A DNA stretch of 64,000 nucleotides from positions 2,178,875-2,242,874 of the forward strand of contig SDUX01000005.1 of NCBI GenBank assembly GCA_008729055.1, given 5' to 3'. Every line of letters begins with the position of its first letter. Position 1 is the first letter of the stretch. Under the pieces are notes generated by a model. The model was not told the DNA's origin. It did not search any database and was given only the letters and a program-made list of their open reading frames with translations. Shown here piece after piece: positions 11,830 to 57,354 of this stretch. The translations under genes were made by a program, and so were the position numbers. This DNA is from Pyropia haitanensis (taxonomy: Eukaryota; Rhodophyta; Bangiophyceae; Bangiales; Bangiaceae).

Positions 11830-12906
11830 GTGAATCATCAACTTAGTGTTCTACATCTTCGGAATCGGTGCAAAGATTACGCCTGCACTTGTTCGGAGCT
11901 TGTACTCCACTACTCTGATCATTCAAATTACCTTGCCCAGCACTTGCGATTACCGCGCATCCTGTTGGTGGAGAACATTTTCCATCTGTCGGATTATTTT
12001 CATCTTTGGGGACTCGACCTGGACACAATAGACCCTCCGAATCCGGCGGCTGTCAGCGCCACCAATCCTGGCTCGTCCTCGGGCGCACCCTTGGCGGAAT
12101 CTTGGAATCAACTTACAGCGTTCGTCGCGCAGATGAGCGCCGAGCTGGTGGCTCATAAGGTTGAACTGGCAGACGCCAAGAAGCAGCTATCCGACGCTAA
12201 GTCCAATGCCGTTGCTGGGAGCATGACGACCGCACGACCGAACAAACCCGCGCTATTTTCGGGCAAGCCCGGGACTATTGAAGCGTGGTGCTCGCACATG
12301 GACTCATATGTGCGGCTGACTGACCCTGAGGAAGCGTGTCGGATCGCCAGTACCTATCTGGACGGTGAGGCGTTTGGCTGGTGGCATACCTACAGTCAGA
12401 CCACGGTAGTCCCCGACTGGGCTGCCCTTCGGGCTGCACTCATCCGACGCTTCAGCCCACTGAACAAGACGCAGGCAGCGCTAGACAAGCTGCACTCATG
12501 GCGCCAAATCAAAGATGTCGGGACGTTTAAGAGGACCTTCCTGAGAGTCCTCTTGGATATCCCCGACATCACTGAAGCTGAGAAGATCGACCGCTATAGC
12601 CGAGGTCTGAAGCGAGACTTATGGCAGGCACTGTGCCTCAAGACATACGCTGATCTTGAATCACTTATGACTGACGCCTTGCGCGTGAAGGCCGCTAAAG
12701 CTGGAGCCTCCCGAATCACCAGCAGTCTTAGCAGCACTTCTGGGAAGCCACCTACGGCTCCTGTCGTCCCCATGGACATCTCTAGCATCATAGTCGACAA
12801 ACTTACGCCCGACGAACGCCAGCGTTGCATGCGCGAGGGTCTGGGCCTTCGCTGTCGCGAGAAAGGTTCCTTGGCTAAGGATTGCCCAAAAGGCCAGCGG
12901 AACTGA
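11830..12906 (+). CDS. gag: Gag polyprotein of Gypsy-1
   Basis: A frame of 358 codons contains a Retrotrans_gag-type capsid region (about residues 135-260, with FSGKPGTIEAWCSHMDSYVR, YLDGEAFGWW and ALIRRFSPLNKTQAALDKL). A coiled-coil-like segment (MSAELVAHKVELADAKKQL) precedes it. The start is uncertain: the frame opens after TGA at 11797, the nearest start-like codon is GTG 11830, and the first in-frame ATG is 12133. Near the C-terminus the zinc knuckle is degenerate. RCREKGSLAKDCPK keeps two Cys, but the first Cys and the His of the CCHC pattern are missing. The 3' end overlaps pol in the -1 frame at a slippery heptamer. Confidence 0.85.
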   Translation: MNHQLSVLHLRNRCKDYACTCSELVLHYSDHSNYLAQHLRLPRILLVENIFHLSDYFHLWGLDLDTIDPPNPAAVSATNPGSSSGAPLAESWNQLTAFVAQMSAELVAHKVELADAKKQLSDAKSNAVAGSMTTARPNKPALFSGKPGTIEAWCSHMDSYVRLTDPEEACRIASTYLDGEAFGWWHTYSQTTVVPDWAALRAALIRRFSPLNKTQAALDKLHSWRQIKDVGTFKRTFLRVLLDIPDITEAEKIDRYSRGLKRDLWQALCLKTYADLESLMTDALRVKAAKAGASRITSSLSSTSGKPPTAPVVPMDISSIIVDKLTPDERQRCMREGLGLRCREKGSLAKDCPKGQRN

Positions 12907-15900
12907 AGCAGCACCCGTCATCAACAGTAGTGCGAGACGCTCCTTCGGTTCCGGAAAACAAGTCGTCACCATTTGAAGGCCCGCGACTCGGGCTACTGCT
13001 TTCTACTGCTTCTATCAATGACAAAGTTGTTAAGGTGCTCTTCGACGACGGCTCTCCCATCAACGTCGTTTCAAGGCGCCTGGTGACCTCCCTGCAAGTA
13101 AATACCCAAGAAACGGATTTCGCGGCAAACAGGCCGGATGGCCGCTCCCATGTCCTCGCTGAAACCATGGAACCCATAGAGATTCACATTGGACCGTACC
13201 AAGAACGACGACGGTTCGCAGTCTGTGACCTACGCGCGTACGACCTCATGCTTGGAAAGAAATGGCGCAATGACAAGGACGCAAAAATCAACAACAAGAA
13301 AAACAAGATCTCCTTCAAGTTCAACGGCAAGAACATTTCTATTACTGCGTCCCTCAAGAAACCCGAGCCCCTCATTAGTCGGCAACGTCTTTCTCGAGAC
13401 CTAATGCAACGATGCCCGGTCTTCGATATTTACCTGCAGTCCGAATATCCCTCAAGCGGCTTCGGTATTAACGCCATCACGATGGGGCACGCCGACGAGA
13501 AGAAAGAAGTCCAAGACGTGCTCAGAGAGTACGTCAACGTCTTTCCTGACGAGCTCCCAGACGGACTCCCTCCTGAGCGAAGTCACAGATTTAGTATCAA
13601 GCTGACTGACGATGCCCAAGCACGTCGCAGCGGAATTTACCGACTAGCGGAACGGGAGCTCGAAGAACTCAAAACTCAACTGGCGGGCCTCATACGGAAA
13701 GGATTCATCCAGCCAAGCACCTCACCATGGGGTTCCTCCGTCCTCTTTGCAGCGAAGAAGGACGATGGATGGCGAATGTGCATCAACTACAGAGTCTTAG
13801 ACAAGGCCACCATCAAGAACGCGTATCCTTTACCACGCATTGATGACATCTTCGACCAACTACGAAACGCCAAGTGCTTCACAAAGATCCACCTCCGCTC
13901 TGGTTATCACCAGATTCGCCTTGACCCGGAAACCATACCTTTGACGGCGTTTCGAACCAAGTACGGACTCTACGAGTTTACCGTCGTACCCTTTGGTCTC
14001 TCGAATGCACCCGCAGTCTTCATGAATCTAATGAACAATGTCTTCCGACCCTACCTATATGACTTCATCTGTGTCTACCTCGATGACATCCTAATCTACA
14101 GCGAAACCTATGACGATCACCTCAAGCACGTAAGGTTAGCACTCGACAAATTGCGAGAGCACAAGCTGTACGCCAAGCTAAGCAAATGCCAGTTCGCTCG
14201 AACCACTGTGGACTACCTCGGCCACGTCATCTCCAAGAAAGGGTTCTCGATGGAAGAATACAAGGTCCAAGCTATTCGTACGTGGGCAAAACCAAGCAGC
14301 AAAAAGGATGTACAATCCTTCCTCGGCATGGTGAACTTTTATCGCCGGTTTATTAAGGGAATGGCTGGCGTAGCCGCGCCTCTAACAAGGCTGACGGGAA
14401 ACGTCGACATTGTGTGGACCCCAGAAACCCAGCAAGCCTTTGAGGAGCTGCAGAACCTGACGACAAGCGCACCAGTACTAAGACCTTTCGATAAGAGATA
14501 TCCCATCTAAGTTTCTACTGACGCCAGCGGATACGCTGTCGGCGCAGTCCTTGAGCAAGATGACGGACGCGGGCGGAGTCCCGTGGCATACTTCTCGTTG
14601 ACCCTCAACATTCACGAGCAGCGCTACAGCATCCGTGAGCGTGAACTGCTTGCAGTTGTACAAGCAATCAGGCATTGGCGCTGCTACCTCTACGGGAGAC
14701 CCTCTGAGGTCCACACCGACCTTGAGTCCCTGAGACACCTGCGAACCCAAGAAAAGTTGAACGATCGTCAAGTCAAGTGGCTGGAGTTTTTGGACCAATT
14801 CCAGTTCAAGATTATCCCTATCAAAGGCACCTCCAACCCCGTGGCTGATGCCCTTTCCAGGCAACCACAAGATGCTTTCGACAAACACGCCCCCAATCAA
14901 GATCTCCCTAGTCGCGTGCTCGAGAAAACCATCGAAGACATCCCCAAGAAACCTGAAATCAACAACCTCATGACCATCAACCAAAGTGACCAAGACCTTG
15001 CCACCCTAGAAAAAGAGTACGAGGCGGAGCCCGAGTTTGCCGACCTAGTCAAAGACCCGGTATCCCCCTACCGGCTGCACATGAGGTTGTTGAAACGAGG
15101 TGACCGTACGTGTATCCCCGTCGGTACTCTACGCCAAAGACTACTCCATGACGAGCACGACGTCCCGTGCCAAGGGCACATGGGAGTCAAGAAAACCACC
15201 AATGCCATTGCTTCCAAGTACTACGGTAAGACGATGCGGAAGGATATCCAAAGATACGTACAAACATGTGATTTGTGCCAGCGGAACAAGGCTAGCACCC
15301 ATTCACGTGCGGGTCACCTCAAACCCCTAGATCCTCTAAGCCAACGATGGGCAAGTGTCTCCATGGACTTCATTACGCCTCTTCCTTTGACTCCAAGAGG
15401 TCACAACGGCATATACGTGGTTGTCGACCGCCTCTCCAAGATGATTCGCCTCGCTCCTATGAAACTGGAATGTACCGCGCCAGTTGCAGCACAGCTGTAC
15501 CACGACCACATCTATCGACACCACGGACTTCCTACTGATGTGGTGTGCGACAGGGACCGCATCTTCTTCTCTAACTTCTGGCGATCCCTTACGGAGATCC
15601 TGAAGGTCAAAGTTAAATCCTCCTCGGCCTACCACCCGCAAACCGACGGACAAACTGAGATTATGAACAAGATGATCGAAGAAATCCTACGAAACTTTGT
15701 CAACCATCACCAAGGCGATTGGGACCTCTTTCTGGTTGCTGCGGAAGTTGCATACAACCGGTCGCCAAATGCTGTGACGACATACTCCCCTTTTTTCCTG
15801 AACTACGGATTTGAACCCAAGACGGTACCCATGGACATCTTCGACAACTCGGATTCAAGTATACCTGCAGTGTCTGACTGGTTAAGCAGTCTGCAACATG

Positions 15901-16421
15901 CTCAGGAGACTGCCATCGCAGCTATCAAGAGTGCAAACGAGACGGGCACGGCATACGCTAATCGCCATCGCCGACCATGCAAGATAACCGTGGACAATCT
16001 GGTGCTTCTGAGCACTAAGCACCTCATGCCAGATGCATTCCAAGGAGCTCGCAAGCTGATGTCCAAGTACTCAGGACCCTACCGCGTCACTGAAAGCATT
16101 AATGACGTCACGTTCCGCCTGGATCTTCCCCAAGCGGTGCTCGATCGCAAGGTTTATAACGCCTTCCATGCGAGCTTGCTGAAGCCGTACCGCGCTGATC
16201 CGTACGGCCGACTTCCTCCCGCTCCGCCTCCAGTTGCATTTCCGGACGGTTCGGTCGAGTACGAAGTCGACTCCATCATACGGTCACGAAAGCGCCATGG
16301 ACGACTGCAGTACCTGGTCAAATGGCAAGGTTGTGACAGCAGCGAGAACTCCTGGCTGAACAAGCAAGACTTTGCGAGCGCACCTGAAGCTCTGGACGCG
16401 TTCTTTCGCCGCGCGTCTTAA
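12879..16421 (+). pseudogene. pol: Pol polyprotein of Gypsy-1 (PR-RT-RNase H-IN-chromodomain), one internal stop
   Basis: One frame runs through both halves and is interrupted only by TAA at 14508-14510, between RT and RNase H. Protease is near residues 45-70 counted from codon 12882, with the unusual active site LFDDGSP in place of the common D-S/T-G. RT has YLDDILIYS at about residue 399. After the stop come RNase H (VSTDASGYAVG), an HHCC integrase zinc domain (GHMGVKKTTN to CDLCQRNK), an integrase DDE core (SMDFITPLP, VVCDRDRIFF, TDGQTEIMNK) and a chromodomain at the end (YLVKWQGCDSSENSWLN). The element copies its RNA to cDNA and inserts it. The stop makes this copy non-autonomous unless it is read through. 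Confidence 0.9.
12885..12891 (+). promoter_or_regulatory. Candidate -1 frameshift slippery site CCCAAAA
   Basis: In the gag frame the bases read C-CCA-AAA, the X-XXY-YYZ pattern of -1 programmed frameshifting. Gag and pol are offset by exactly -1, and the pol frame is open only from 12879 (after TAA at 12876), so the heptamer falls inside the 28-nt overlap. Slippage would append pol to gag. I have not shown a downstream pseudoknot. Confidence 0.6.
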
Positions 16422-27681: not shown

Positions 27682-27867
27682 TCCCCCATAATTCGATCAC
27701 GGGACGAGCGCGAGACCGGATCCGATCCTCCGCCTGGGACCTGTCTCGTCCTGAGACCAGCAGCCAGCGGGCGCCACACCCACACGTACGAGTGTTTCCT
27801 GCACCCGCTCGCCCTGGGTAGCCGTGACGGTCCGTGGGGTCGCTAGATGCTACAGTCACGTTTGCCC

Positions 27868-28340
27868 ACCGCCACTCCTCCCCCCGAAAGAACCGAACGA
27901 AGCCGAACGCAGCGCCCGCCACAACTCGTAAATGGCACTGGCGACTCCGCCCACCCGCTCTCTCGCACACCACGCCTTAACCCAAAAACATAAATACAGA
28001 CACGCCCTCTCCTCGCCGCGCCAGCAACACGAATCCGCTTGCCGCCGTCTTGCCCGTGTATTCCCCGTCCGTCAACTGCTGCGCCCGCCACCACCTGTTG
28101 CCAACGATCCACACACAAGCACAATCAAACCAGCCACCGTCATGCAACATCACGACACCACCTCAGCCCTGCATGAGCTTGTCCCTCGCCGCGACCACCC
28201 CGCCCCCAGTCGCCTCGCCCCCCCAACCCGCACTCGCGCCAACCACGCCCCCACTCAAACGCACACCCCTAAGCCACCCCTCGCCCCCGCCCGCCGTCCT
28301 AACCCCCTCGCCGTCATGTTGCATGCCTTGTCCCCGTCGA
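27868..28340. repeat. Proline-codon-rich block, copy 1 of a direct repeat
   Basis: It matches 28787-29270 in the same order: CCCGAAAGAACC..., CACGCCTTAACCC, ACAGACACGCCCTC, TGCCGCCGTCTTGCC, a CCACCACCTGTTGCCAACGA block and ACAAGCACAATCAAACCAGC. Identity is about 80% by eye. A shorter third partial copy (GCGCCCGCCACCACCTGTG) begins near 28262. Confidence 0.8.
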
Positions 28341-28766
28341 CTAACTGCTGCGCCCGCCACCACCTGTGTTCATCCAGCCACATTCACAAGCACAATCTAA
28401 ACAGCCAACCTCGCTCCTCTCCCCCATCCACGAGCTCCGGCGGACGGTCCGGCCCGTGCCCTGCCCCGTCGTCTTCTTGCGAGGGTGAGAGCGCTGGCAG
28501 ACGGGCGTCACGGCGACCCTGGCCGTGGCGGCGGCGACAGTGACGACAGTGATGACGGCAGCGACGTCGCTGGCAGTTGCGGCAGACAGCCAGGTGCTCG
28601 TAACGATGGTCAAGCCGGTGGGGACGGCAGTGACGACGACCAGGGCGATAGCCGCCGCCACCACCACCCCCACCAACTGCACCACCGTCATGAACGCCTG
28701 TCTCTCCACCAGCCCCGCCAAAAACGTCGCCGACACCACAACCATCGCCGCTGCCGCCGCGCCCAT
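28341..28766 (-). CDS. Hypothetical hydrophobic protein between two direct repeats
   Basis: ATG 28766 opens a frame of about 141 codons: MGAAAAAMVVVSATFLAG, then VVQLVGVVVAAAIALVVVTA, a likely membrane segment, a second Ala/Val-rich stretch (DVAAVITVVTVAAATARVAV) and a basic Cys-containing tail. It is bracketed by the two proline-codon repeat copies. No family recognised. The plus strand has an equally long Thr/Ala-rich frame, so this could be low-complexity DNA without a gene. Confidence 0.2.
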   Translation of the reverse strand: MGAAAAAMVVVSATFLAGLVERQAFMTVVQLVGVVVAAAIALVVVTAVPTGLTIVTSTWLSAATASDVAAVITVVTVAAATARVAVTPVCQRSHPRKKTTGQGTGRTVRRSSWMGERSEVGCLDCACECGWMNTGGGGRSS

Positions 28767-28786
28767 GCCGCCGTGACGTCCGCCCC

Positions 28787-29270
28787 CCACCACTCCCCCC
28801 CCCGAAAGAACCCAACAACGCCGGACGCAGCGCCCGCCGCTACTCGCGAATGGCGCTCCCGGCCACGCCTACCTGCACTCGCCCACACCACGCCTAAACC
28901 CAAGAAAAAAAAAAAACAGACACGCCCTCCCCTCGCCGCGCCCACAACACGAATCCCCTTGCCGCCGTCTTGCCTGTCTTGTCCGCATCAGCCCAGTGAA
29001 GCGCCCGCCACCACCTGTTGCCAACGATCCACACACAAGCACAATCAAACCAGCCGCCGTCATGCATCACCGCAACACCACCTCTCATCAGAGTCCATCC
29101 CTCCATCACCGCGCACAAACCACCCTCCCTCGGCATCACCCGGCCTTCCCGCGCCAGAGCAAACCACGCCCCCACCCAAACGCACACCCAACCCCCCCCC
29201 CTGGCCTCTCCCCGCCGTCCTCACCCCCTCGTCGCCGCCTTGGCTGTCTCGTCCGTGTCCGCCTAGTGCT
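28787..29270. repeat. Proline-codon-rich block, copy 2 of a direct repeat
   Basis: See the copy at 27868-28340. It includes a 12-base poly-A run (28907-28918) absent from copy 1. The two copies with a 450-bp spacer could be a segmental duplication or the terminal repeats of a small non-coding retroelement; I see no polypurine tract or target duplication to support the latter. Confidence 0.8.
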
Positions 29271-29679
29271 GCTCCGACTGTTATTGCAGAGCTGATTTAC
29301 GTCCATTTCTCTTTCGTTTCGACCACATCGGTGTGATTTCAGCCATTGTTGTAGATAGCGAACTTGCCCGTTCAAGTGAGCACAGCGCATGATGACGGTC
29401 AGTCTGTGCATGCAGCGGATACTGGCAATGACCTGGACGAGGCCAGTACGACGGGGCCTGTCATTCAAACCAGCCAGTGCGCGTCGGGGCGAAAAGGCTC
29501 ACGTCAAATTCGTATCGATTTGACGCCGGGCCGCAGTAACAGCAGATTCAATGCTCAATGGCTCTGCACATGCAGATTACTCTCATACTCCGTGTGGCAC
29601 GAAACATTAACCCGTCAACATGAGCTGCGGTCTCAACGTCAACGCGCAACAGAATTCGCGATGGCAAATGCGCTCTTGG
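29271..29679. other. No supported gene; possible first, poorly conserved unit of the satellite
   Basis: GC content drops here. Around 29490-29560 the order GGCTCACG...GATTTGACG...CAATGGCTCTG faintly resembles the satellite units that follow, but not enough to count it. Confidence 0.35.
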
Positions 29680-31605
29680 CATCTGCGATACAGAGTACAC
29701 TAAAATTGCACTGCCTGGAGAGTTGGCGTATGAAAGTTCAACATTAAAATGGAAATCGCACTCCCCAGCGGTGCTTACCCACATGAATTCAGTTCGCAGA
29801 TCGGCAAACTCCAGAAAATAGGCTGTATCCAATTGATTCACGTCAAGGATCTAGAGTTGTTTTAGTGACAGCCATCATAGTGTTCGCGCTTAGGGACCTG
29901 CTCCCTAACAAAGCTCACAAAGTTTGAAGTGCTTGGACAGTCCCAGAACAACAGTTGAACAATCAGACTGTCTCAGGTTCCCCAGTACCTCTCAAGCACC
30001 TTACTGAAGTTATCATATAAGCCCGCCAAAAAAATAGCCTGTAGCCGTTTGACACATATCAACCATCACAAATTGTGTCGGACGCAGCAATAACTTTTGC
30101 TGGGCCCAGAACACAGGTCCACCATGAGCATGCGAAGATTGCAGTTTGTGAAAGTTTGACAGACGACGGAACCACACTCAGATCCGTCCAGACTCTCCGA
30201 CGGTGCTCACACGTCTGGCTTGAATTGTCAGTCCAGCAAACGCAAGCACTTGAGACGAAGTTAAGTCAATCACATCAAACAAAATTAAGGTTTTCTGGAA
30301 CGGCGAGAACGTTTACCGCGCGCGAAGCACGCGTCCGTGACGAGGGCACAAAACTTGCGCTGCCTTACCATTTGATCGACGAAGGCTGAACAATTACAAC
30401 CAGATTGCGCTCCCAAAAGGTTCGCAAGCAGCTGACTGCAATCGGCCGCTCGGCACACCCCAGAAAGGAGGCAGTAGCCAATTCAGTTACATTCAGCACC
30501 AAGAATTGTTTCTTGGACGGTGATGTTGTGTTCCCGCTTTTGGTGCGCTGGACGATGATGAGCAAATTTGACGACGTTGACGTTGAAAGTCGAAGGCTTG
30601 TTATGGAAATGTTGTCATCGTCCCCAGTGGTTGTCAAGCACCAGTTTATAATTTTCGGTCCGGCACGTCTCAAGAATTGCGCTAATGCAACTTCAGGCAC
30701 AGGAGCCCATCAATAATCTTTCTGATACGTCGGCATTTTTGTTTGCACTCAGGTCAGTGGTCAATCATGAGCACGCAGAGGTTGCAGTGCTTGGACAGGT
30801 GAAGGAAGAAAGCTCACTTTTGAAGTCGTCTGAGGCTCCTCTGGGAATGTCAAGCACCTGACTTTAATCATCACTCCGGCGCGCCCTAAAGACAGCCTGC
30901 AGCGACTTCGGTAGAAAAATTAAATGAGTCGCCGAATCAGCCATATTATTCGACGCCGTCTGGGCTGAGATCCATACTGAAGATACGAAAGTTGCTCTGC
31001 CGTATAGGACCAACGCTTAACATGATGGTCGTGTCACACTCCCTTGTGGTTGTCCAGCGCGCTCCAATGGACAGACTCCGGCAGGTTCAGTGACATGAAT
31101 CCGCAAATTGCGTTGCTGAGACATCGCCAAGTTTGTTCGCACTCGGAGCCGTGGCACATGATAACCACTTGGAGTTTGCAGTGGTTGGATAGTTGACAGA
31201 TAAAATCTTGAACTTGGAATTGGCTCGCGCTTTCACGCGGCTCCAATGGGCCTTTCTGAGTGTTTCCAAAAGTAGTCTGAAGCCAATACTGTAACTTTAA
31301 AGATCAGGACTTGTGCCTGACACAGCCGTAGTACTCTTTGCGCCCGGGGCGCGTGTCTAACAAAAGCGTACGAAGAATGCACTGTCTTGACGTTTAAAGG
31401 ACAAACGCTTACTAATGATATTGCCTCGGGCTCCCCAGCGGCGCCCACGCGCAAGACTTCAAGCGTCAATCCAGCACGCCCGAAAAATTGAGCCGCAACC
31501 AATTGAGTCAAACCGAGCGACAATGATTCCTTCTGGGACGGCGATGATAGTCCTGGCGCCCGGGGCACTTGTCCAGGGAGAGCACATTGAGACTGGTGGC
31601 CGATG
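29680..31605. repeat. Highly diverged tandem array, about 190-220-bp period, about nine units
   Basis: Two landmarks recur in phase. Landmark A: TACACTAAAATTGCACTGCC (29701), CTCACAAAGTTTGAAGTGCT (29914), GCATGCGAAGATTGCAGTTT (30129), CACGCAGAGGTTGCAGTGCT (30772), ATACGAAAGTTGCTCTGCC (30981), CACTTGGAGTTTGCAGTGGT (31163), CGTACGAAGAATGCACTGTC (31365). Landmark B, 60-100 bp later: CTCCCCAGCGGTGCTTACCC (29761), GTTCCCCAGTACCTCTCAAG, GTCCCCAGTGGTTGTCAAGC (30620), CTCCTCTGGGAATGTCAAGC (30836), CTCCCCAGCGGCGCCCACGC (31431). The period drifts between about 190 and 220 bp. Units share only scattered blocks, so this is an ancient or fast-evolving satellite. No open frame of note crosses it, and it is AT-richer than its surroundings. 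Confidence 0.7.
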
Positions 31606-32689
31606 GCTGCTGTTTCTGTGCTGGAGGGCGAGCGCGGCGGCCCGCACACAAGGCGGCTGACGGCCGGCTCTCGTGGTAGGGGCACGCGGCGGAAAAGGGC
31701 AGGAGCGGCGACGGGCAACACGGGACGACCGGCCCCGCCGTGGCGGCCGTCCCGTCCCGGCCGCTTCCCCGCCTCCCCGACTGGCGCGCCCCGCCGTGCT
31801 GGTGACCTACCCGTTTCAATTTCGACGGCGCTTCCGCAGCACGGTCGACCCGACCTGCCGCAGCGGGTCGGGTCAAATGGCCGCCGAGCGGCACCCGCCG
31901 CCGCCCGCCAGCCGCCGTCCCCCCACCCCGCCCGCCGCTCGCGTGGCCCTCCCCCACAGCGAGCGGCGCCGACCGCCACGGCCGAGGACGTCTGCGCGCG
32001 TGCCGCCGCGGCGGCGGGTGGGGGACGGCCGCCCGCGTCGGCACTGCCGCCTCTATTCCTCTGCACTATGGCCCATTCAGCGACCTTTCGTACTCGCCCG
32101 ACAGGCGATCGTCCCGAAGAGCGCAGCCAGCAACGTCAGGACCAACTCATATTTGTACACGTGGCAGCCAATACTGGCGAATCTGGCCCGAATACGCAGA
32201 ATGATGTTTGTCGGTGTCCTACATCAATAGACGCGATTCCAACGGCGACCATAGAGTCACATTCGGAAAGTCACAATTTTAAAAAGAAAGTGCGTCTGCC
32301 ACCGCCGATCTCGCGCTCTTCATCTACCATCCGTGCCGCACTTCCCCCCCTCCTCGTGTTCTATGGCAAACTGCGCTGCCGTTTCTCGTGTAGAGTCAAC
32401 CCTTTCCACCGGGGGGTCCTTGAAGAAAGCGCTGAACCTGGTTTTGAGTGAGACTTGGGTATCTGTCGCCGCCCTCAAGACGGCGTACCATCGAAGCCTG
32501 GCGGGACATTGCGGTGCTCACGGGAACGCCCGGCTGACGGCGAGGCAGCGAGAAGGACAAGCAATCAAGAAGCGAGCGAGAAAAGCAAAGGCCAGTAAAA
32601 AACCCCTGCCCGGCATTGGCGAAGGAAGAACGCCGCAAACAGAGAAGCAAGCGGGGAGGCGAACGCGAGAACGTCAGGCTGCCCGACGG
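31606..32689. other. No supported gene; possible 3' non-coding end of YR-1
   Basis: A 282-codon plus frame (31603-32451) and a 277-codon minus frame compete; both are Arg/Pro/Ala-rich without domains. The right portion lies downstream of the YR-1 recombinase remnant and may hold its terminal repeats, but I found no clear partner sequence upstream of the YR-1 gag. Confidence 0.35.
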
Positions 32690-33361: not shown

Positions 33362-34223
33362 TGTGAGGCACCACCCACACACGGGCAGCCCTCAACGTAC
33401 TGGTGCCGGTGTCAGCTACCCGTGCAAGACAATGAGGATGCCGGGCGCGGGGAAGGTGACGGGTGGGGTGACGGTGATGGGGGTGGGGCAGATGATGGGC
33501 GTGACGTCGGTGAGGGTTGAGGGGGTCGAGGGTAAAGGAAGTCTTTGTGTCTCTGTCTGTGGTTGTCCCCCCGAGGTCTCTCCCGGTGGCGCCCACACTC
33601 ACGCATGATTGACCCCCAGGGGGGCACCCAGGATGCCCCATAGCATGCGATTGCCCGCCGTGCCGGTGGCCGGCACCAAAGCTCTCAAAACAAAGCATGG
33701 GCTCTCAGAACAAAGCAAGGGTGGGCGTGTGCGCCCCAAGGCCTCCCACCAGAGAGCCCCAAACGGGGGGGGGACGGTGTGCGGCGCTCGTAGCTCCGCG
33801 CGGCTGGCCTCACGCGCCATTCGACCCGAAAGGTCTCAAAGGCGTGTAAGCAGACGCCAGTCTTCGGGTCGAATATCTTCCGTGCGTCGCAAGTCTTGTC
33901 ACTCCATTTGGTCCACGGGGAGATTGTTTCGGCTTGCTGACGCGTCAGAGATGTGGCTCGTCTCTTGGTCCGTTAGTCCGTTGATCCTTTGGAGAACGTA
34001 CCCGTCGGCAGATGAGTTTGGATAGTGACGGTCAGCCAATCCGCTGCTCCCGTGCTGACTGTCCGTTAGTAGTAGATTATTGGACGGACACCGCGGCATG
34101 CCCGAGATTACGTTGGAGTTGATGCGTCTTGGAAGGAGTTGGCTGAGAAAGACAGGGAAGGAGAGGCCCCAGTCCTTATCCCCTAGACTCCAGTCTTGGG
34201 GATTTAAGGGGCATATCCTTACA
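33362..34223 (-). repeat. Solo LTR of the Gypsy-1 family inserted in YR-1
   Basis: 862 bp in reverse orientation: left edge TGTGAGGCACCACCC (complement of the Gypsy-1 LTR end) and right edge GATATGCCCC...CCTTACA (complement of TGTAAGGATATG). It contains the CACCGACGTCA block on the minus strand and no internal element sequence. Flanking 5-mers are GCGCT (33357-33361) and ACGCT (34224-34228), a target duplication with one mismatch. Removing the LTR and one 5-mer joins the YR-1 frame as VLPVWTA-HPWWAR, matching VLPVWPAHPWWRR in YR-2. Confidence 0.93.
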
Positions 34224-36158
34224 ACGCTGTCCAGACCGGGAGCACCATGACCGCCGCTGCCCCCTTGGTGGTCACCTTCGTCGCCGCCAACGCGGCTTGC
34301 ACGAATGGGGAGTTGACGTGGTTCGTCATTCCCCGCCAGTCTTGCCACCAGGCTTCCACGGCTTCGGCGCAGGGACATGCCACCGCTGCGTTGAAGCGAG
34401 GCAGCTGCGCCTTGGTCAACGTTGCGAAACGGTCCACGTGCAGGGGCTCCCACCGCGCGGCCAGGACCAGGAAGATCGAGCGGCGGAGCCGCCAGTCCGA
34501 CGAGTTCAGCTCTCGCGACAGCCGGTCTGCGTGGTGGTTAGTGACCGTCGACAGCCAGACGGCCTTGGCTCTCAGCTGCCGCCGGTGCAGCTCCCAATGC
34601 AGCTCCCCCACCACCGCCATCAGTGCTGGGGAGCGTGACCGCATTGAGTTGATGAAGTGCAAATTGACGAGCGAATCCAGCCCGAATCGGACGACCCCCG
34701 GGCCCCTCAGCTTGGGTAATGAGCGGAGGGCCAACACCGCCCCCCACAGCTCCTTGATGTTGATGTGGGCGGGCTGCACGGCCGTCGAGAAAAATCCCCG
34801 CGTCGGCACTAGTCGGTTCAAGACGCTCCACCAGCCGTAGCCGCAGGCGTCCGTCGTGATCTCCCCCACCACCGGGATCTGCCATAGCGCGCGTCCAACC
34901 TTGGGGGACGTCGCCAGGGAGCACAACCACACTAAGTCAGCCAATGCACGCGCGTCCAGACGGCGTTGCCCGCGGCGGGGGCCCTCGCGGAAGCAGGCGT
35001 ACAGCGCCTGCAGGAGGAGGCGTGCCTTGGGGACCGCTGGGGCGGTCGAGACCGCGAGGCCGCTAAACCGTTGGAGGGAGGTGAGGGACACACAGCGGGC
35101 GTGCGTGGTCACGTAGCGCCGCAAGGACACGGCCGATCCCACTACGCTGCGCAGGCGGTGGGGCGGCAGCAGTAGCAAGCAGCGGTGTGTGTCGATTCTT
35201 AAGCCCAGATGGTCCAGGGAGCGCGTACCCTCCACTGCGCCTTTGCGTTTGTGAACGACGAGCCCCAGCGAGCGCAAGACTTTCACCTCCTTGTCCCGGC
35301 CACGTGTCGCGCGCGCCGCCGACACTGGCCGCGGGCCTGAGGAGAGATACCCGAAGTCGTTCATGTAGGGCAGCACCTTGAAGCCGCGTACCCGCAGATA
35401 CGCAATCATTGGGCGCAGCATCCTCGTCCAGACCCAAGGGGCCAGCTTGAGACCGAACGGCATGGTCAGCGGCAGGTAGACTGTGCCCGCGACGGCAAAC
35501 GCCAGCAGGAAGGTCTCCCGCTCCGCCAGGTACACGTCGTCGAAGGCGTCCACAACGTCCCATGACGTGAGGTGGTCGTTCAAGCACAGGTACATGACAA
35601 AGTCGGCCATGACCTCGTACTTGAACGGGCGGTCTTCCAGAAAGCGTTCTGGTGCTGGTAGTCGGTCACCAGGCGCGGCCGCGTGTTGATGCCCACCGCA
35701 AACGACACAGGCACTCAGCGGACCTTACGGGCCTCCGCGGCCGAGGCGCGGCGGGCAAAACCCCGCTCGCACCAGCGTCCGACCTCCACCACCGCCCAGT
35801 GCTGGACGTCTGGGGGAAGGGGAATGGGCGGCGGGCGCCACTGTGGCGGCTCGGCTCGCCATGGCAAGAACAGCCCCGCCTCGATGAGCTCGAGCACCCA
35901 TGGAAAGGCGCCAATCCAGCGCCAGGCCGGCAGCGCTGCGCGTACAGCCACGTGCGGGAGGGGCTGACCGGGCGGTGCCCGCGGCTTGGGAGCGAGGCGG
36001 GCTGGAACCTGCGGGAGAAAGGGGGGGGCGGGGAGGGGAGGGGGGGACAGCGGGGCGGGACGGGACAAAGTACTGCGCACAGCGGCGCCCTCGCCGGAGG
36101 GGGTGACCGCGCCGGCCAGACTTTTAATCGCGAGGAAGAGAGGGGGCCAGCCGGCCAC
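34224..36158 (-). pseudogene. Reverse transcriptase-RNase H of YR-1
   Basis: An upstream frame (36158-35715) carries the start of the domain: WIGAFPWVLELIEAGLFLPW, then PPDVQHWAVVEVGRWCERGF. It ends at a TGA and, after a frameshift near 35640, continues as an intact 463-codon frame (35610 leftward): DHLTSWDVVDAFDDVYLAER, MPFGLKLAPWVWTRML, LPYMNDFGYLSS and an RNase H (TTDACGYGWWS, HINIKELWGAVLAL, NHHADRLSREL). The polymerase motif reads YMND instead of YMDD (AAC for GAC), which loses a metal-binding Asp. With the TGA, the shift and the LTR insertion this copy is dead. It copies element RNA in intact relatives. Confidence 0.88.
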
Positions 36159-40683: not shown

Positions 40684-43600
40684 CGGGGAGTGGGTTTTCG
40701 CCTACTCCCCGCCCCTGGGATAGAACCTGCACGCCTACTACGTTTGCATCTACGACTTCCCGTTGCCCTCCGGTACTCCGCCGTCGGGCCCCTGCTTATG
40801 GGCCGGAGGAGTACCATCGTGGGGCCCCCTATGCGTTTAAGGGGACCCTCCTTGTTCTTCGTAAGAGAAACTTTGAGATTGAGACGGCCATCCAGTTGAC
40901 TCATCGGCACAAGGCCCAACCAACCCGGGCAGTCTTGGACACCGGCGCGGGCCCAAGCGTTATCCGTGAGGACTTCCTTCCTGAGGGCTGGCGGCGCTAC
41001 GCTTACCGGCCCCCGAAGTCAACCCGAGTGTGCGACGCCTCGGGACAACTACTACGGGCCTGCGCGGTGCTCGAGACGACCGTCCTCGTGGAGGGAAAGG
41101 CCATGGTGTTCTCTTTCTTGGTTGTCAAGGCCCTCTCCGTCCCTGTTATCCTCGGGATGGATTTCCAAAAGGAGTACGTGAAGGCCATTTACCCGGGGAC
41201 GGATGCCGTGCTGTGGTACGACGGTTCCCTCACTTCGGCCGTCAGGGCGTGGACGGGCAAGGAACAAGCGGCCCCGCAGCAGAGGGCCCCTTCCCTACGA
41301 CTTGACCCGGCCGCCCTAAGCCTTTCCCGGTCGGTCACCGTGGAGCCCTACTCTGTCCAGGCTGTCTTTGGCCATTGCGGGACGACGGGGCGGTGCCTAC
41401 TACGGGAACGGCCAGCCAAAATGGCCGAGAAGGGGATTTTATTACACAACGCGTTGGCCGACGTCAAGGCCCGACGAGACTTCCGGTTCTACTTGACCAA
41501 CATCACCGCGAGGCCTGTCAACCTCCCCAAGGGCTTTGTCGTGGGCCTTGTTGAGCCCTACCACGGGCCCGTTTTTGAGGCCGACGATGGGACGTGCTCA
41601 CCCCTCGGTGAAGGGGCCGACACGGTAGCAGAGGTGACGCAAGGGCCGGAGGCTGACGGTGGTGGATCGCATGGGCCCATTCTCAACCCAGAACAGGCCC
41701 CCGACGCTCCTCCCCCGCCGGACGAATCCGCGGCCCAACGTCAAGACGGCCCCAAGTTGCCACGGGTGGCCTACGAGGTCATCCCCCCCGAGTTGCATGA
41801 GGCCGTCCGAGATTTGGTCGGCCGCTACCAAGGATTATGGGACGGGACTCTGGGCCGCATGGACATCACGCCGCACCGGATCACGTTGGCCCCGGGGTCT
41901 CGACCCGTGCGTTCACAATCTTACCGGACGGGCCTCTACCACCGAGGGCTCATCGCGGACCAAGTGGCCAGGCAACTCAAGCTGGGCGTCATCGAGCCCT
42001 CGCAGGCCGAGTGGTCCTTCCCGATGGTCATCGTCCCCAAGCCCGACGGGTCTCCGAGGTTCTGCGAGGACTACAGAAGGCTCAACGACATGACGGTCAA
42101 AGACACGTACCCTCTGCCCAGGATGGACGATTGTATTGACTTCTTGGGCGAGGCCACCGTGTTCTCCGTGTTGGACTGTAACATGGGCTATTGGCAGATC
42201 CCGGTGGCCGTCGAGGACCAGGACAAGACCACGTTTACGTGCCACGAGGGGACCTACAGATACGTTCGCCTTCCCTTCGGCCTCACCAATGCACCCGCGA
42301 CCTTCCAGCGGGCCATCGACATGCTCCTCGCGGGCCTCAAGTGGAAGTCCGTGCTTGTCTACCTGGACGACGTGATCGTCTTCTCAAGATCGGCCCAAGA
42401 GCACGTGGGCCACCTGGAGGAGGTCTTCTCGTTGATTGCGAAGGTCGGCATATCCCTCAAGGCCAGCAAGTGCTTCCTCTTCCAAGAGGAGGTCGAGTAT
42501 CTGGGCCACATCGTCGGCAAGGGCCACGTCAGGGTGAACGAGAAGAACCTCGTTGGGCTACGGAAAGCCGAGCCACCTACGACCAAGAAGAGCCTGCGAA
42601 GTTTCCTTGGCATGTGTAATGTCTATCGGAGGTTTGTGAAGGACTACGCCGCCGTCGCCAGGCCGTTGACGGCCCTCACAAGTTCTAAGGTGGCCGACCC
42701 GCTGCCCAAGTTCAATGAGGAGCAAGTCAAGGCCTTCGAAGATCTTAAGTGGCGGCTGACCCACACGCCCATTTTGGCCTTGCCGCGACGGACGGGCCAA
42801 TACACCGTGGACACCGACGCCAGTGCGGCCCAAGTGGGCTGCGTCCTACTCCAAGAGCAGCCCGGAGGCGGCCACAAGCCCGTCGGGTACTGGAGTAGGC
42901 CCCTGTCGTCGGCCGAGAGGAACTACAGCACGACGGAGCGGGAGTGCCTCGCCGTCGTGTGGGCCCTCTTCCTTCTTCGGCCCTACCTGTTGGGAACTCG
43001 GTTTATTGTGCGGACAGACCACACGGCTCTCAAGTGGATGCTCCACATGGACGGGGCTCACGGCCGGTTAGCCCAATGGAGGTTACGGTTGGCCGAGTTT
43101 GACTACCTGGTGGAGACCCGGAGCGGGGCGGCCCACCATGCGGCGGACACGATGTCGAGGCTGACTACCTCGGGGGCCGACTTGAGCCCCATCCCGGAGG
43201 AGATCCCGTGCCTCACACTGGCCAACTTTGCTCGCGGGTGGGTGGCCCCCGACCCCGAGACTAACAAGGGCTACCCCCCGCTGACGCTCGAGAGGCTTGT
43301 GAAGGCCCAATCGACGGACATCCGCTGCCAGTCTGTGAGGGCAGAAATGGACAAGAACGCCCACTCAAGGTTCGGGGAGACCCCCGATGGCCTACTCGTC
43401 CGGCTGAGCCCTTTGGACAAGTCGGTCCAAGTTTATGTGCCGGAGGGCCTACGCCAAGAAGTTCTCGCTCTGGAGCACATGCCGGCCCACGCCGGCCACC
43501 CCGGGGTCAACAAGATGTACGCCTCCATGCGGCGGACCTACTACTGGGAGGCCATGGCGGCCGACGTGTACGACTACGTGGCCAACTGCGATGTGTGCGC

Positions 43601-44900
43601 GAAGAGCAAGGTTAGGGGCCGTCGACGGACAGCCCCGCTACGCCTCTTCCCCGCGTCGGAGGCCCTTGCGGACGTGTGCCTGGATTTGTTGGGCCCACTG
43701 CCCACAACGGCCAGCGGCAACCGTTTCCTGTTGGTCATCGTGGACCGCCTCTCCAAGCTTACGCGGGTGGCCCCCATCCCCCGGGAAAACGCGGAGACAG
43801 TGGCCTCGGCGTTTTGCGACACGTGGGTGGCCTCCTATGGGCCCCCCGACACGCTGTTGACGGATAATGGCCCCCAGTTGGCCTCCACCTTCTTCCGGGG
43901 CTTCTGCGGTATGTTGGGCATCCGTCACCTGACCTCCACGGCCTACCATCCGCAGACGCAAGGCCAAGTGGAACGCTACAATCGGACCATCGTGGCGCAG
44001 CTGAAGGCCTACGTGTCGGAGCACCAGGAGTCGTGGGACGAGTTGGTGTCTGTTCTCTCTTTGGCCTACAACTCCCGGCCGCAGCAGAGCACCGGCGTCG
44101 CCCCCTTGGAATTCGCGGCCCCCGAGAGGGTCCGCAACCTCTCCCTCGAGCGTTTGCCGGCCAGCCCGTACCCCAAGGAGGTCCCCCAGTCACCGCGGGC
44201 CGCTCGGGAGTATGATCGGGCCCGCCTGAGGAACCTGACCCACCAGGTGCGGAAGGCCTTGGCTGCAACGCAGCGGAGGTACAAGCGGGCCTACGACAAG
44301 AGGGTGAGGCCCGTCAACAAGACCCTACGTGTGGGTGACTGGGCCTACGTCGACGCCAACATCCAACACCCCAAGAAGTTGGACGAGACTGTCTTGGGGC
44401 CTTTCCAGATTGTCGGCCGAGACGCCCACACGTTTACGGTTATGATGGGTGGCCATCCTGAGCGGGTCAGTGGGGACAACGTGGCGCGCGCCCCCACCCC
44501 GAAGGACCAAGTGGACTCCTCGACCATCCTGCGCGGACCACAAGGCCTAGCGGTGCCGTGGGACCACACCGAGACGGGCCAACAATTTGTTTGGGAGCGC
44601 TTCGTGGACTACACGCACGACGAGGAGGGCAAGCTTTGGCTACTCGTGCGCTGGTGGGGTTACGCGGCCGACGAGGATACCTGGGAGCCCCACGACAGGC
44701 TCGACGAGCGCAAGGTGGCCGAATACTGCCGGCGGATGGGCGTCGCGGTTCCTCCTACGGCCGGCGAGATAAGGGCCCTTTGGGGCCCCCTCTATGAGCT
44801 CTGCCATCCGGGCGAAGAGTTGGACGTGGCCGCAGACCCGAGCGACCCCATGAGTTTGGTGGAGGCCCTCACGATAGACCCGGGCTTTTCGTGGGCCTGA
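40597..44900 (+). CDS. pol: Pol polyprotein of Chromo-2 (PR-RT-RNase H-IN-chromodomain)
   Basis: The frame is open from about 40597 (after TGA in this frame) to TGA 44898 with no ATG in the first part, so expression as a gag-pol fusion by -1 frameshift is expected; I see no canonical heptamer in the overlap. Numbering from codon 40896: protease VLDTGAGPSVI (Asp15), RT YLDD 489-492, RNase H VDTDASAAQVG (Asp639), integrase HHCC from His865 (HPGVNKMYAS to CDVCAKSK), catalytic D930 (CLDLLGPLP), D990 (LLTDNGPQ), E1026 (GQVERYNRT) with 35 residues between D990 and E1026, and a chromodomain near 1229-1283 (LLVRWWGYAADEDTWEPHD). All catalytic residues are present. Confidence 0.96.
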
Positions 44901-55681: not shown

Positions 55682-57354
55682 GTGCGTTTTGCTCGCGTCC
55701 CCTGGGACCTGGACGCCTCGCTCCTCCCTCGACCGACCTGGTCAACTTTCGCCCCGCCCCGTCCCTCGGTCCTCCGCTCTCCGTCGACCACGACAGCGGC
55801 AACGCCCGGCCCCGACCGGCGCCCCCCCCTTGCCCCGCCATTGGACCGCCCGACGAATCGGAAGGCCCGCCGCGCTCACCTGCAGCCCAAGCCCGTCGGG
55901 ACTGGTCCGCCCCCGCACGTCACCGCTCGCCGGGCGTGGCGCTAGTGGCGGGCGCTCGGCGCATCCGGTCCGGTGCTCCGCGTCCTCAAGGATGGCCTTC
56001 TTCTCCCCTGGCGCCGCACCCCGCCCCCGTAAATGGCCCCGACGATTCTTCAACCCCCCGACGTGCAGCCATGGGCCAAGACGGAGGTGGCCCGCTGGGT
56101 GAATCGCGGTTATTGTCGACCGGCCACGCCGGCCGAGGCCATGAGCCCGCACAGGCAGGCGGCCTCTTTTGTGGCCGACGTCGACCGCAAGCCCCTTATG
56201 GTGGTCGACCTCTCCCCAGTCAACTGCTGGCTGCACGATCGAGCCTTCAAGTACGACGTGCTGCCCAGCTTCATCGCGATGCTCAAGAAGGGCGACCATA
56301 TGGCAAGCTGGGACATCAGCGACGCGTTCCATCACATCCGGCTGGCCCCCCGCGAGAGCGCGCGTCTGGCCTCCCGGGTGGGCACGGTCTTGTGGTTCTT
56401 TTTGACGCTTCCCCTCGGGCTCAAGCTGGCACCCTGGGCGCTGACAAGGCTACTACGACCGGTGGTGCAACACCTCCGCTCCCTGGGCTACTTGATGATG
56501 CCGTATATGGACGACTTTGCCATTTCCGTCGACCAACCAAATCCGGTTACTCTGACCCAAGCCACGGCGGCCCGCGCAGTCGCGGTCTCGCTTTTCCCGC
56601 GCTTGGGCCTTCACGTGCACCCTTCAAAGGGCGCGTTCGTCGGCACTAGCAGGTTGCACGTTCTCGGCTACACGATCGATACAACACGGTGCCCCCTCCT
56701 ACTTCCGCCGCAGCGACAACAGCGGATCGTCGGCACCGCCCACTCTCTCCTCAGGCCGCCGCCTTGGACCGCTGCTGGGTCCGCGCCCGTGCTCTCCGCC
56801 GGGTCTGCGGCCTGGCCTGCTCGGCGGCCCTCGCTGTCCCCCTCGGTCGTCATCACCTCCGTTCCCTCTTTTCTTCTCTCGGTGCCTCCCGCGGACGGAC
56901 TTGATTGACGTCGCCTGCCCTGCGGGACCTTCTATGGTGGTCCGCCCTCAAGTTCACCCTGGGGATCGGCCGCTCTCTTTGGGAAGCCCCGACCGCGATG
57001 CACCTCGACACGGACGCGTGCGCGACTGGCTGGGGCGCGGTCCGCGACCAGCTAATATCAGCGCGCGGCTTCTTCGACCTCGCAACGTCGCATTACCACA
57101 TCAACCGCAAGGAGCTGTTGGCCGTCATCTACGCCCTCGAGTCCTTCCCATCCGCGCGGGGACCCGGCGTGGTACGGGTCCGGACGGACTCCACGGTAGT
57201 GATGGCCGTCATCAACTCCCTTTACTCGCGCTCACCGGCGCTGCACCGAGACGTGACGAAGCTGCGCAAGATTCTCGCCGATCGGGACTTGGGCATAGAG
57301 GCGACCTGGCTCTCCTCCGTCGAGAACAAGTGGGCCGATCGCTTGTCGCGGTAG
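55682..57354 (+). pseudogene. Reverse transcriptase-RNase H of YR-2
   Basis: The RT frame shows the N-terminal motif WRALGASGPVLRVLKDGLLL with in-frame TAG at 55943 and TAA at 56030. From ATG 56033: VQPWAKTEVARWVNRGYCRP, HMASWDISDAFHHIRLAPRE, LPLGLKLAPWALTRLL and the catalytic MPYMDDFAISV. A frameshift near 56750 moves to another frame that reaches TGA at 56902. RNase H then reads LDTDACATGWGAV, HYHINRKELLAVIYAL, VRTDSTVVMAVINSLY and NKWADRLSR, ending at TAG 57352. Unlike YR-1, the YMDD box is intact, but expression is impossible without repairing several lesions. No protease or integrase is present. Confidence 0.88.

What the first reader, a model, noticed from the sequence alone, without database searches (positions are those of the whole stretch)
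29680..31605. Ancient tandem array with drifting 190-220-bp period
No gene explains this AT-richer segment, but two landmark blocks recur in phase about nine times (A: like CACGCAGAGGTTGCAGTGCT; B: like CTCCCCAGTGGTTGTCAAGC). Unit-to-unit identity is low, so routine tandem-repeat masking could miss it. It could be a decayed satellite or a repeated array with a structural role.
Basis: seen in the sequence. Interest (0 to 1): 0.75.

Follow-up and report, generated by a model that had tools for sequence, protein, structure and literature searches.

The report
Decayed transposon carrying tandem repeats
The weak 200-base repeats are real, but they look like the internal, long-decayed part of a jumping DNA element that was copied to several places in an alga's genome, rather than a centromere-type satellite.

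Summary
The array is real: nine units and the start of a tenth (29694 to about 31590), spaced 186-218 bp, mean unit identity 52% against 37% in shuffled units; best self-diagonal 50 against at most 16 in 200 shuffles. Tandem Repeats Finder lists nothing there. It is not a local satellite. Longer or shorter parts of the same array recur in eight further copies at 75-81% identity, in the strong matches on contigs C1, C6 and C8 only. Units fall into 11 ordinal groups shared between copies, so the array was built once and copied. Overlapping copies show its setting: ~1.1-kb inverted end repeats, an IS630/Tc1/mariner-type DDE_3 transposase, the array, a right flank and the end repeat inverted, about 7.9 kb by tiling. 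No copy read holds everything. The window has an internal fragment without transposase or ends, inside a second repeat family. I found no coding signal, no privileged A/B box and no likeness to the end repeats. Best reading: a tandem array that grew inside a DNA transposon, drifted, spread by transposition and decayed. Comparable elements are in print (Tetris, Galileo, Merlin). A structural or centromeric role is not supported, but chromatin could not be tested.

The parts
29270..29693 (+). Left flank of the array: about the second half of the ~0.9-kb non-repeated stretch that in other copies begins with the transposase 3' end and runs to unit 1
   Evidence: 84% identical over 409 bp to a C1 copy; similarity to the C8, C6d and C6e copies starts at 29266, to C1 at 29287; junction alignment
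29694..31575 (+). Array: nine units (u1-u9), profile hits of 178-215 bp; ordinals u10 and u11 of other copies are missing here apart from a possible start of u10
   Evidence: profile hits at 29694, 29912, 30127, 30343, 30564, 30770, 30983, 31172 and 31365; leave-one-out test; tree
31576..31590 (+). Possible start of the truncated next unit; right edge of the transposon fragment (uncertain by a few bases)
   Evidence: similarity to the C6c copy ends at 31585 and E2 resumes at 31595; junction alignment
27855..29276 (+). Left piece of a second repeat family (called E2 here) bordering the fragment; elsewhere E2 holds 270-bp tandem arrays
   Evidence: 79-88% identical to copies on C4, C9 and C11 in its long matches; 270/271-bp period on C4
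31595..31977 (+). Right piece of the same E2 family
   Evidence: 81-87% identical to C4, C9 (two places) and C11 copies, in the same order relative to the left piece

Best explanation
The segment is an internal fragment of an old DNA transposon of the IS630/Tc1/mariner kind. Shown: units of 11 ordinal classes were already diverged before the copies dispersed; in overlapping copies the array lies downstream of a DDE_3 transposase and upstream of an inverted copy of the element's ~1.1-kb end; in the stretches read no array copy has transposase and both ends. Inferred: tandem duplication (unequal exchange or replication slippage) built the array inside one ancestral element, the units drifted without homogenisation, the transposase moved the element as a whole, and the copies decayed. 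The window copy lost transposase and ends and was left inside another repeat family. The array most likely did nothing for the host.
For: Eight further copies at 75-81% identity. All 11 ordinal groups have starred support (97-100 / 96-100) in a tree of 60 of the 66 units. Transposase 3' end, left flank and array are joined in the C1 and C6e copies; array and right flank in C1, C6a, C6b, C6c and C8; right flank and end repeat in C6b and C6c; end repeat and transposase in C6x and C8x. DDE_3 at 37.2 bits, cut-off 28.6; IS630 profile E 4e-13, below its equivalog cut-off; D75, D171, E205 spaced 95/33. The predicted fold of a 69% identical relative ranks Mos1 and Sleeping Beauty first. End repeats 94% identical over 1.1 kb, inverted. 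TA stands before CAGCC at 5 of 7 termini read. Gaps of one base dominate (180 of 268 gap counts over overlapping pairs of copies) and ts/tv is 1.02, compatible with neutral decay.
Against: No copy read holds both ends, transposase and array; the 7.9-kb map is a tiling. No target-site duplication of one insertion was read. Of the 7 termini, only two (C6b with TA, C6x without) belong to the array family itself; the other five are relatives that share only the first ~80-107 bases. By sequence alone the PDB search gave only E 0.16 for Mos1, and the model is of modest confidence (mean pLDDT 68). The second D is present in 15 of 18 aligned relatives (my count). Identity within ordinals does vary along the unit (p 0.0002), which plain uniform decay would not give. 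Some copies are recent duplicates (C1 99.7%, C6d/C6e 97.9%), so independent insertions number fewer than nine.
Confidence: 0.86

Rival explanations
1. Decayed satellite or centromeric array: tandem repeats homogenised and kept at a chromosomal site for a structural role, now degenerate.
For: Unit length near a nucleosomal repeat length (recalled); AT-richer segment; Ty3-type elements with chromodomain in the same window.
Against: Units group by ordinal across copies, not by locus. The array is joined to the same non-repeated flanks in several copies. Strong matches are scattered, six on C6 alone. Homogeneous satellite-like arrays found here belong to another, 270-bp family.
Confidence: 0.05
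2. The array serves the transposon: repeated transposase-binding or enhancer units, as proposed for tandem repeats in the ends of Galileo and Tetris (PMC4079207, passages seen).
For: Unit order is the same in every copy, although only C6a shows all eleven ordinals, its first in part. Identity within ordinals varies along the unit (p 0.0002) and the first ten columns are among the most alike between units (0.67).
Against: The unit profile finds nothing in the end repeats even at E 10 (four chance-level matches at E 0.27-7 in the right flank), whereas Tetris repeats share 37 bp with its ends. Between-unit conservation is not blocky (p 0.33). The array is on one side only. A related element on C10 (42% protein identity) has an open transposase frame and no match to the unit profile in 10 kb; its own ends were not found.
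Confidence: 0.08
3. A decayed repeat-protein gene or a multi-exon cargo gene.
For: Similar units in fixed order would also fit an old repeat-domain gene.
Against: Spacings of 218, 217 and 216 in C1 and C8 change phase; stops shared by at least three quarters of the copies occur in every unit; 18-30 stops per frame in the window array. Caution: not every frame of every unit has a shared stop, and the mismatch lag-3 test has no power here, because the transposase fails it too.
Confidence: 0.02
4. Captured fragment: the surrounding E2 element took up a piece of the transposon, rather than the piece being left by insertion and deletion. This concerns how it got here, not what it is.
For: E2 left and right pieces lie on both sides in the E2 order, with the E2 middle replaced.
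Against: Among the E2 places found, only this one carries the fragment; junctions show only a few bases of overlap.
Confidence: 0.15

Closest known systems
IS630-Tc1-mariner (ITm) DNA transposons
   Same: DDE_3 catalytic domain; helix-turn-helix in relative P0003; inverted ends; TA before the terminus at 5 of 7 ends read
   Different: Ends of ~1.1 kb, inferred length ~7.9 kb (PMC7386202 gives 1.2-5.2 kb for pogo elements; passages seen), an array of 11 ordinals on one side, triad spacing 95/33
Tetris foldback transposon of Drosophila virilis (PMC4079207; passages seen)
   Same: DNA transposon with long inverted ends and internal ~220-bp tandem repeats
   Different: Tetris repeats lie inside its ends, are 87-94% alike, vary in number and seeded satellite arrays; here they lie between transposase and one end and are ~52-54% alike with fixed ordinals. 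The shared length is probably coincidence (inference)
Galileo, P superfamily (PMC4168063; passages seen)
   Same: Long inverted ends; direct tandem repeats in some copies
   Different: Other transposase superfamily; in D. willistoni repeats were inside the ends of one copy
Merlin families with internal tandem repeats in protists (PMC8101967; passages seen)
   Same: Internal tandem repeats in DNA transposons of protists, Symbiodinium among them
   Different: IS1595-type transposase domain in the passage seen, not DDE_3

Membership tests
IS630-Tc1-mariner DNA transposon | DDE transposase of the DDE_3/IS630 type | tested here: met
   PF13358 over its cut-off for the C8x frame; NF033545 IS630 E 4e-13 but 49.6 bits, under the equivalog cut-off of 100; fold of relative P0003 against Mos1 E 1.8e-8, model mean pLDDT 68; PDB by sequence only E 0.16
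IS630-Tc1-mariner DNA transposon | Terminal inverted repeats | tested here: met
   1.1 kb, 94%, inverted, between C6x and C6b; C8x and in part C6c agree. They belong to different broken copies
IS630-Tc1-mariner DNA transposon | TA target-site duplication on both sides of one insertion | tested here: inconclusive
   TA precedes CAGCC at 5 of 7 termini, five of the seven being relatives sharing only the outer ~80-107 bases; no two ends of one insertion were read
IS630-Tc1-mariner DNA transposon | The window fragment itself carries transposase or ends | tested here: not met
   No match of transposase or end repeat in the window; it is assigned through its array and left flank
Satellite DNA | Units homogenised within a locus | tested here: not met
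   Eleven ordinal groups across copies; identity 0.54 between and 0.76 within ordinals
Centromeric repeat | Centromeric chromatin | not testable with these tools
   No chromatin data; the distribution does not suggest it

The most novel reading that the evidence does not exclude
A lineage of large ITm transposons in algae carries, on one side only, a fixed array of about eleven ~215-bp units kept in number and order while its sequence drifted, so that length or spacing rather than sequence was what the element needed (for instance as a spacer, a nucleosome-phasing or a silencing-insulating segment).
Probability: 0.07. Interest if true: 0.5.

Novelty: new member of a known kind. Interest (0 to 1): 0.27.

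Why it matters
It turns an apparent satellite into a transposon fossil and shows that a DNA transposon can carry an old, unhomogenised tandem array through its spread. For annotation it gives a unit profile and a map by which such fragments can be recognised in this alga. As a biological surprise it is modest.

Tried and rejected
Coding: stop counts, shared stops and unit phase speak against it. The mismatch lag-3 test was dropped as evidence because the transposase, the coding control, gave no lag-3 signal either.

RNA: no Rfam match at gathering score in the window, no tRNA. One unit (u4) folded on both strands gave z 0.71 and -0.42; the other units were not folded.

A/B boxes as motifs: not more conserved than the rest. 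Inverted repeats of 12 nt or more within the array: one 14-nt pair. Unit in the end repeats: none at E 10.

The 863-bp repeat at 33362-34224, also next to some array copies, was first taken as a possible end of the element; it is probably an LTR of an abundant other family with pairs about 6.5 kb apart.

Relatives outside the genome: 72 proteins, from sources labelled jgi, ena, lgn and metaclust. Viral contigs: 11 pattern matches, 0 confirmed. Prokaryote genomes: 58 pattern matches, 0 confirmed. The contigs behind the 72 proteins were not read, so whether relatives have arrays is unknown. C10 relative: only short GC-rich repeats by TRF and no unit match in 10 kb; its ends were not found. The C72 and C3 relatives could not be fetched.

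E2: ten open frames from a C9 copy gave no Pfam family; its nature is open.

Literature: seven searches answered. 'tc1 mariner' + 'internal tandem repeats' + 'transposase' gave 0 papers. The library is open-licence PMC only, so a description elsewhere cannot be excluded. PMC5963040 (Tisochrysis TEs; passages seen) lists eight mariner families; the passages shown mention no internal arrays.

Host: LHC family 15 matches, RuBisCO small subunit family 0 matches, which suggests an alga with a red-type plastid (inference); species not identified.

Full report
Names. Copies are called by contig: C1 = L009+L010; C6a = L011; C6b = L012; C6c = L014; C6d = L015; C6e = L016; C8 = L013; C8x = L044; C6x = L045. 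C1, C6b, C6d, C6e, C8, C8x and C6x were turned to the window's orientation. 'E1' is the transposon that holds the array, 'E2' the repeat family around it.

Nine units and the start of a tenth lie at 29694 to about 31590, spaced 186-218 bp; mean identity 0.52 against 0.37 in shuffled units; best self-diagonal 50 against at most 16 in 200 shuffles. Leave-one-out profiles find 9 of 9 units at E 3e-12 or better; the best of 180 shuffled units has E 1.9. In 30 shuffled arrays plus the rest of the window the full profile finds nothing below E 0.67. TRF lists nothing there.

It is dispersed, not local. The stretch 29600-31650 gave 16 matches there; such counts are lower bounds by the tool's own note. 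Ten are array matches at E 5e-92 or better, the window included: six on C6, three on C1, one on C8. Two of the C1 matches are parts of one interrupted copy, so there are nine copies, most of them incomplete. Of the other six matches, three (C4 and two on C9) match only the E2 edge and three are short array pieces. Some copies are recent duplicates: C1 99.7%, C6d/C6e 97.9%.

The array predates the dispersal. A unit profile found 66 units in 8 of 14 stretches searched; the 57 outside the window are found with a profile of the window's nine units alone. The tree used the 60 units covering at least 150 profile positions; six partial ones were left out. It gives 11 groups, each made of units of one ordinal position from different copies, all with starred support. 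Only C6a shows all eleven ordinals, its first in part. Identity is 0.76 within and 0.54 between ordinals, on 51 rows after nine near-identical duplicates were set aside. Unit 11 is closest to the others (0.51-0.62), units 5 and 7 farthest (0.46-0.55). Nothing points to homogenisation within a locus.

What surrounds it. Left of the array other copies share ~0.9 kb, of which the window has about the second half. Its first ~210 bp encode the C-terminal part of a transposase (C1, and likewise C6e). C8x and C6x continue leftwards with more of the transposase and a ~1.1-kb stretch that recurs inverted, at 94%, at the right end of C6b, and in part in C6c. The C8x frame of 280 aa is open and carries DDE_3 (37.2 bits, cut-off 28.6), with D75, D171 and E205 as likely triad; D75 and E205 are invariant in 18 aligned sequences, the second D is in 15 of 18 by my count. 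The C6x frame is broken. Relatives number 72 in a 5.8-billion protein set, the closest 84% and 99% identical, many 361-374 aa long. By sequence alone no solved structure is significant (Mos1 E 0.16). A model of relative P0003 (mean pLDDT 68, pTM 0.58) ranks Mos1 and Sleeping Beauty first; the TM-score by target length is about 0.35-0.44 on whole Mos1 chains and 0.54-0.70 on catalytic-domain chains of Mos1, Sleeping Beauty and Metnase/SETMAR, with retroviral integrases further down. The end repeat had 30 matches in the genome, among them inverted pairs that look like non-autonomous relatives. Of seven termini read, five have TA before CAGCC; five of the seven are relatives that share only the outer ~80-107 bases, and of the two array-family ends C6b has TA and C6x has not.

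Tiling: end repeat 1.10 kb, transposase region 1.48, left flank 0.89, array ~2.39 (C6a, its first unit extended to full length), right flank 0.84, up to 0.07 between, end repeat 1.10: about 7.9 kb.

Mechanism. Ordinal units shared by copies, ts/tv 1.02 and 180 of 268 gap counts of one base (pairs of copies overlap), shared stops and phase changes and the lack of blocky conservation between units (p 0.33) suit a passenger array: built by tandem duplication in an ancestral element, drifting, carried by transposition, then decaying. Against plain uniform decay, identity within ordinals varies along the unit (p 0.0002); I cannot tell constraint from uneven mutation. That the array did something for the element cannot be excluded, but the unit has no likeness to the end repeats, unlike Tetris, and the related C10 element shows no such array in 10 kb.

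In the window the fragment (about 29270-31590) lies between the left (27855-29276) and right (31595-31977) pieces of E2, in the order seen in E2 copies on C4, C9 and C11. Whether by insertion and deletion or by capture is open.

Comparison. DNA transposons with internal tandem repeats are in print: Tetris (~220-bp repeats in its ends), Galileo and Merlin (passages seen). Membership in the ITm group rests on transposase and ends of sister copies, not on the window fragment itself. I file it as a new member of a known kind with unusual anatomy, and score the interest low.

Noticed in passing
G000 C4:2776952-2784419, C9:1646865-1651905, C9:3802336-3810613, C11:1097194-1102905; decayed relative in window 27855-29276: A second repeat family holds 270-bp tandem arrays (two blocks of seven on C4 at 96-98% matches) at one place on C4, two on C9 and one on C11, with pieces on C27. 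It is a better satellite-like candidate than the finding (inference).
   Followed up: partly
window 33362-34224: LTR-like repeat of an abundant family: 40 other places at 94% scored of 227 candidates, several in pairs about 6.5 kb apart; no partner near the window copy in that capped list.
   Followed up: partly
window 11830-16421 and 40896-44900: Two Ty3-type elements with RT, RNase H and integrase domains; gag found in the first; chromodomain over the cut-off in the first, just under it in the second.
   Followed up: no
window 34219-35610 (-) and 56033-56908 (+): Reverse transcriptase fragments of other elements.
   Followed up: no
G000 C1:323516-325698, C6:1295574-1297289, C6:2606285-2609209: Inverted pairs related at 63-66% to the E1 end repeat, with outer ~80 bases at 82-84% in two of them; probably non-autonomous long-ended relatives.
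   Followed up: no
L046:4268-5407 (C10): A related DDE_3 transposase (42% identity) with an open 379-aa frame and no unit match within 10 kb.
   Followed up: partly
L016:1-1410 and L014:9411-10000: Further tandem arrays near E1 copies, with periods 87 and 60 bp.
   Followed up: no
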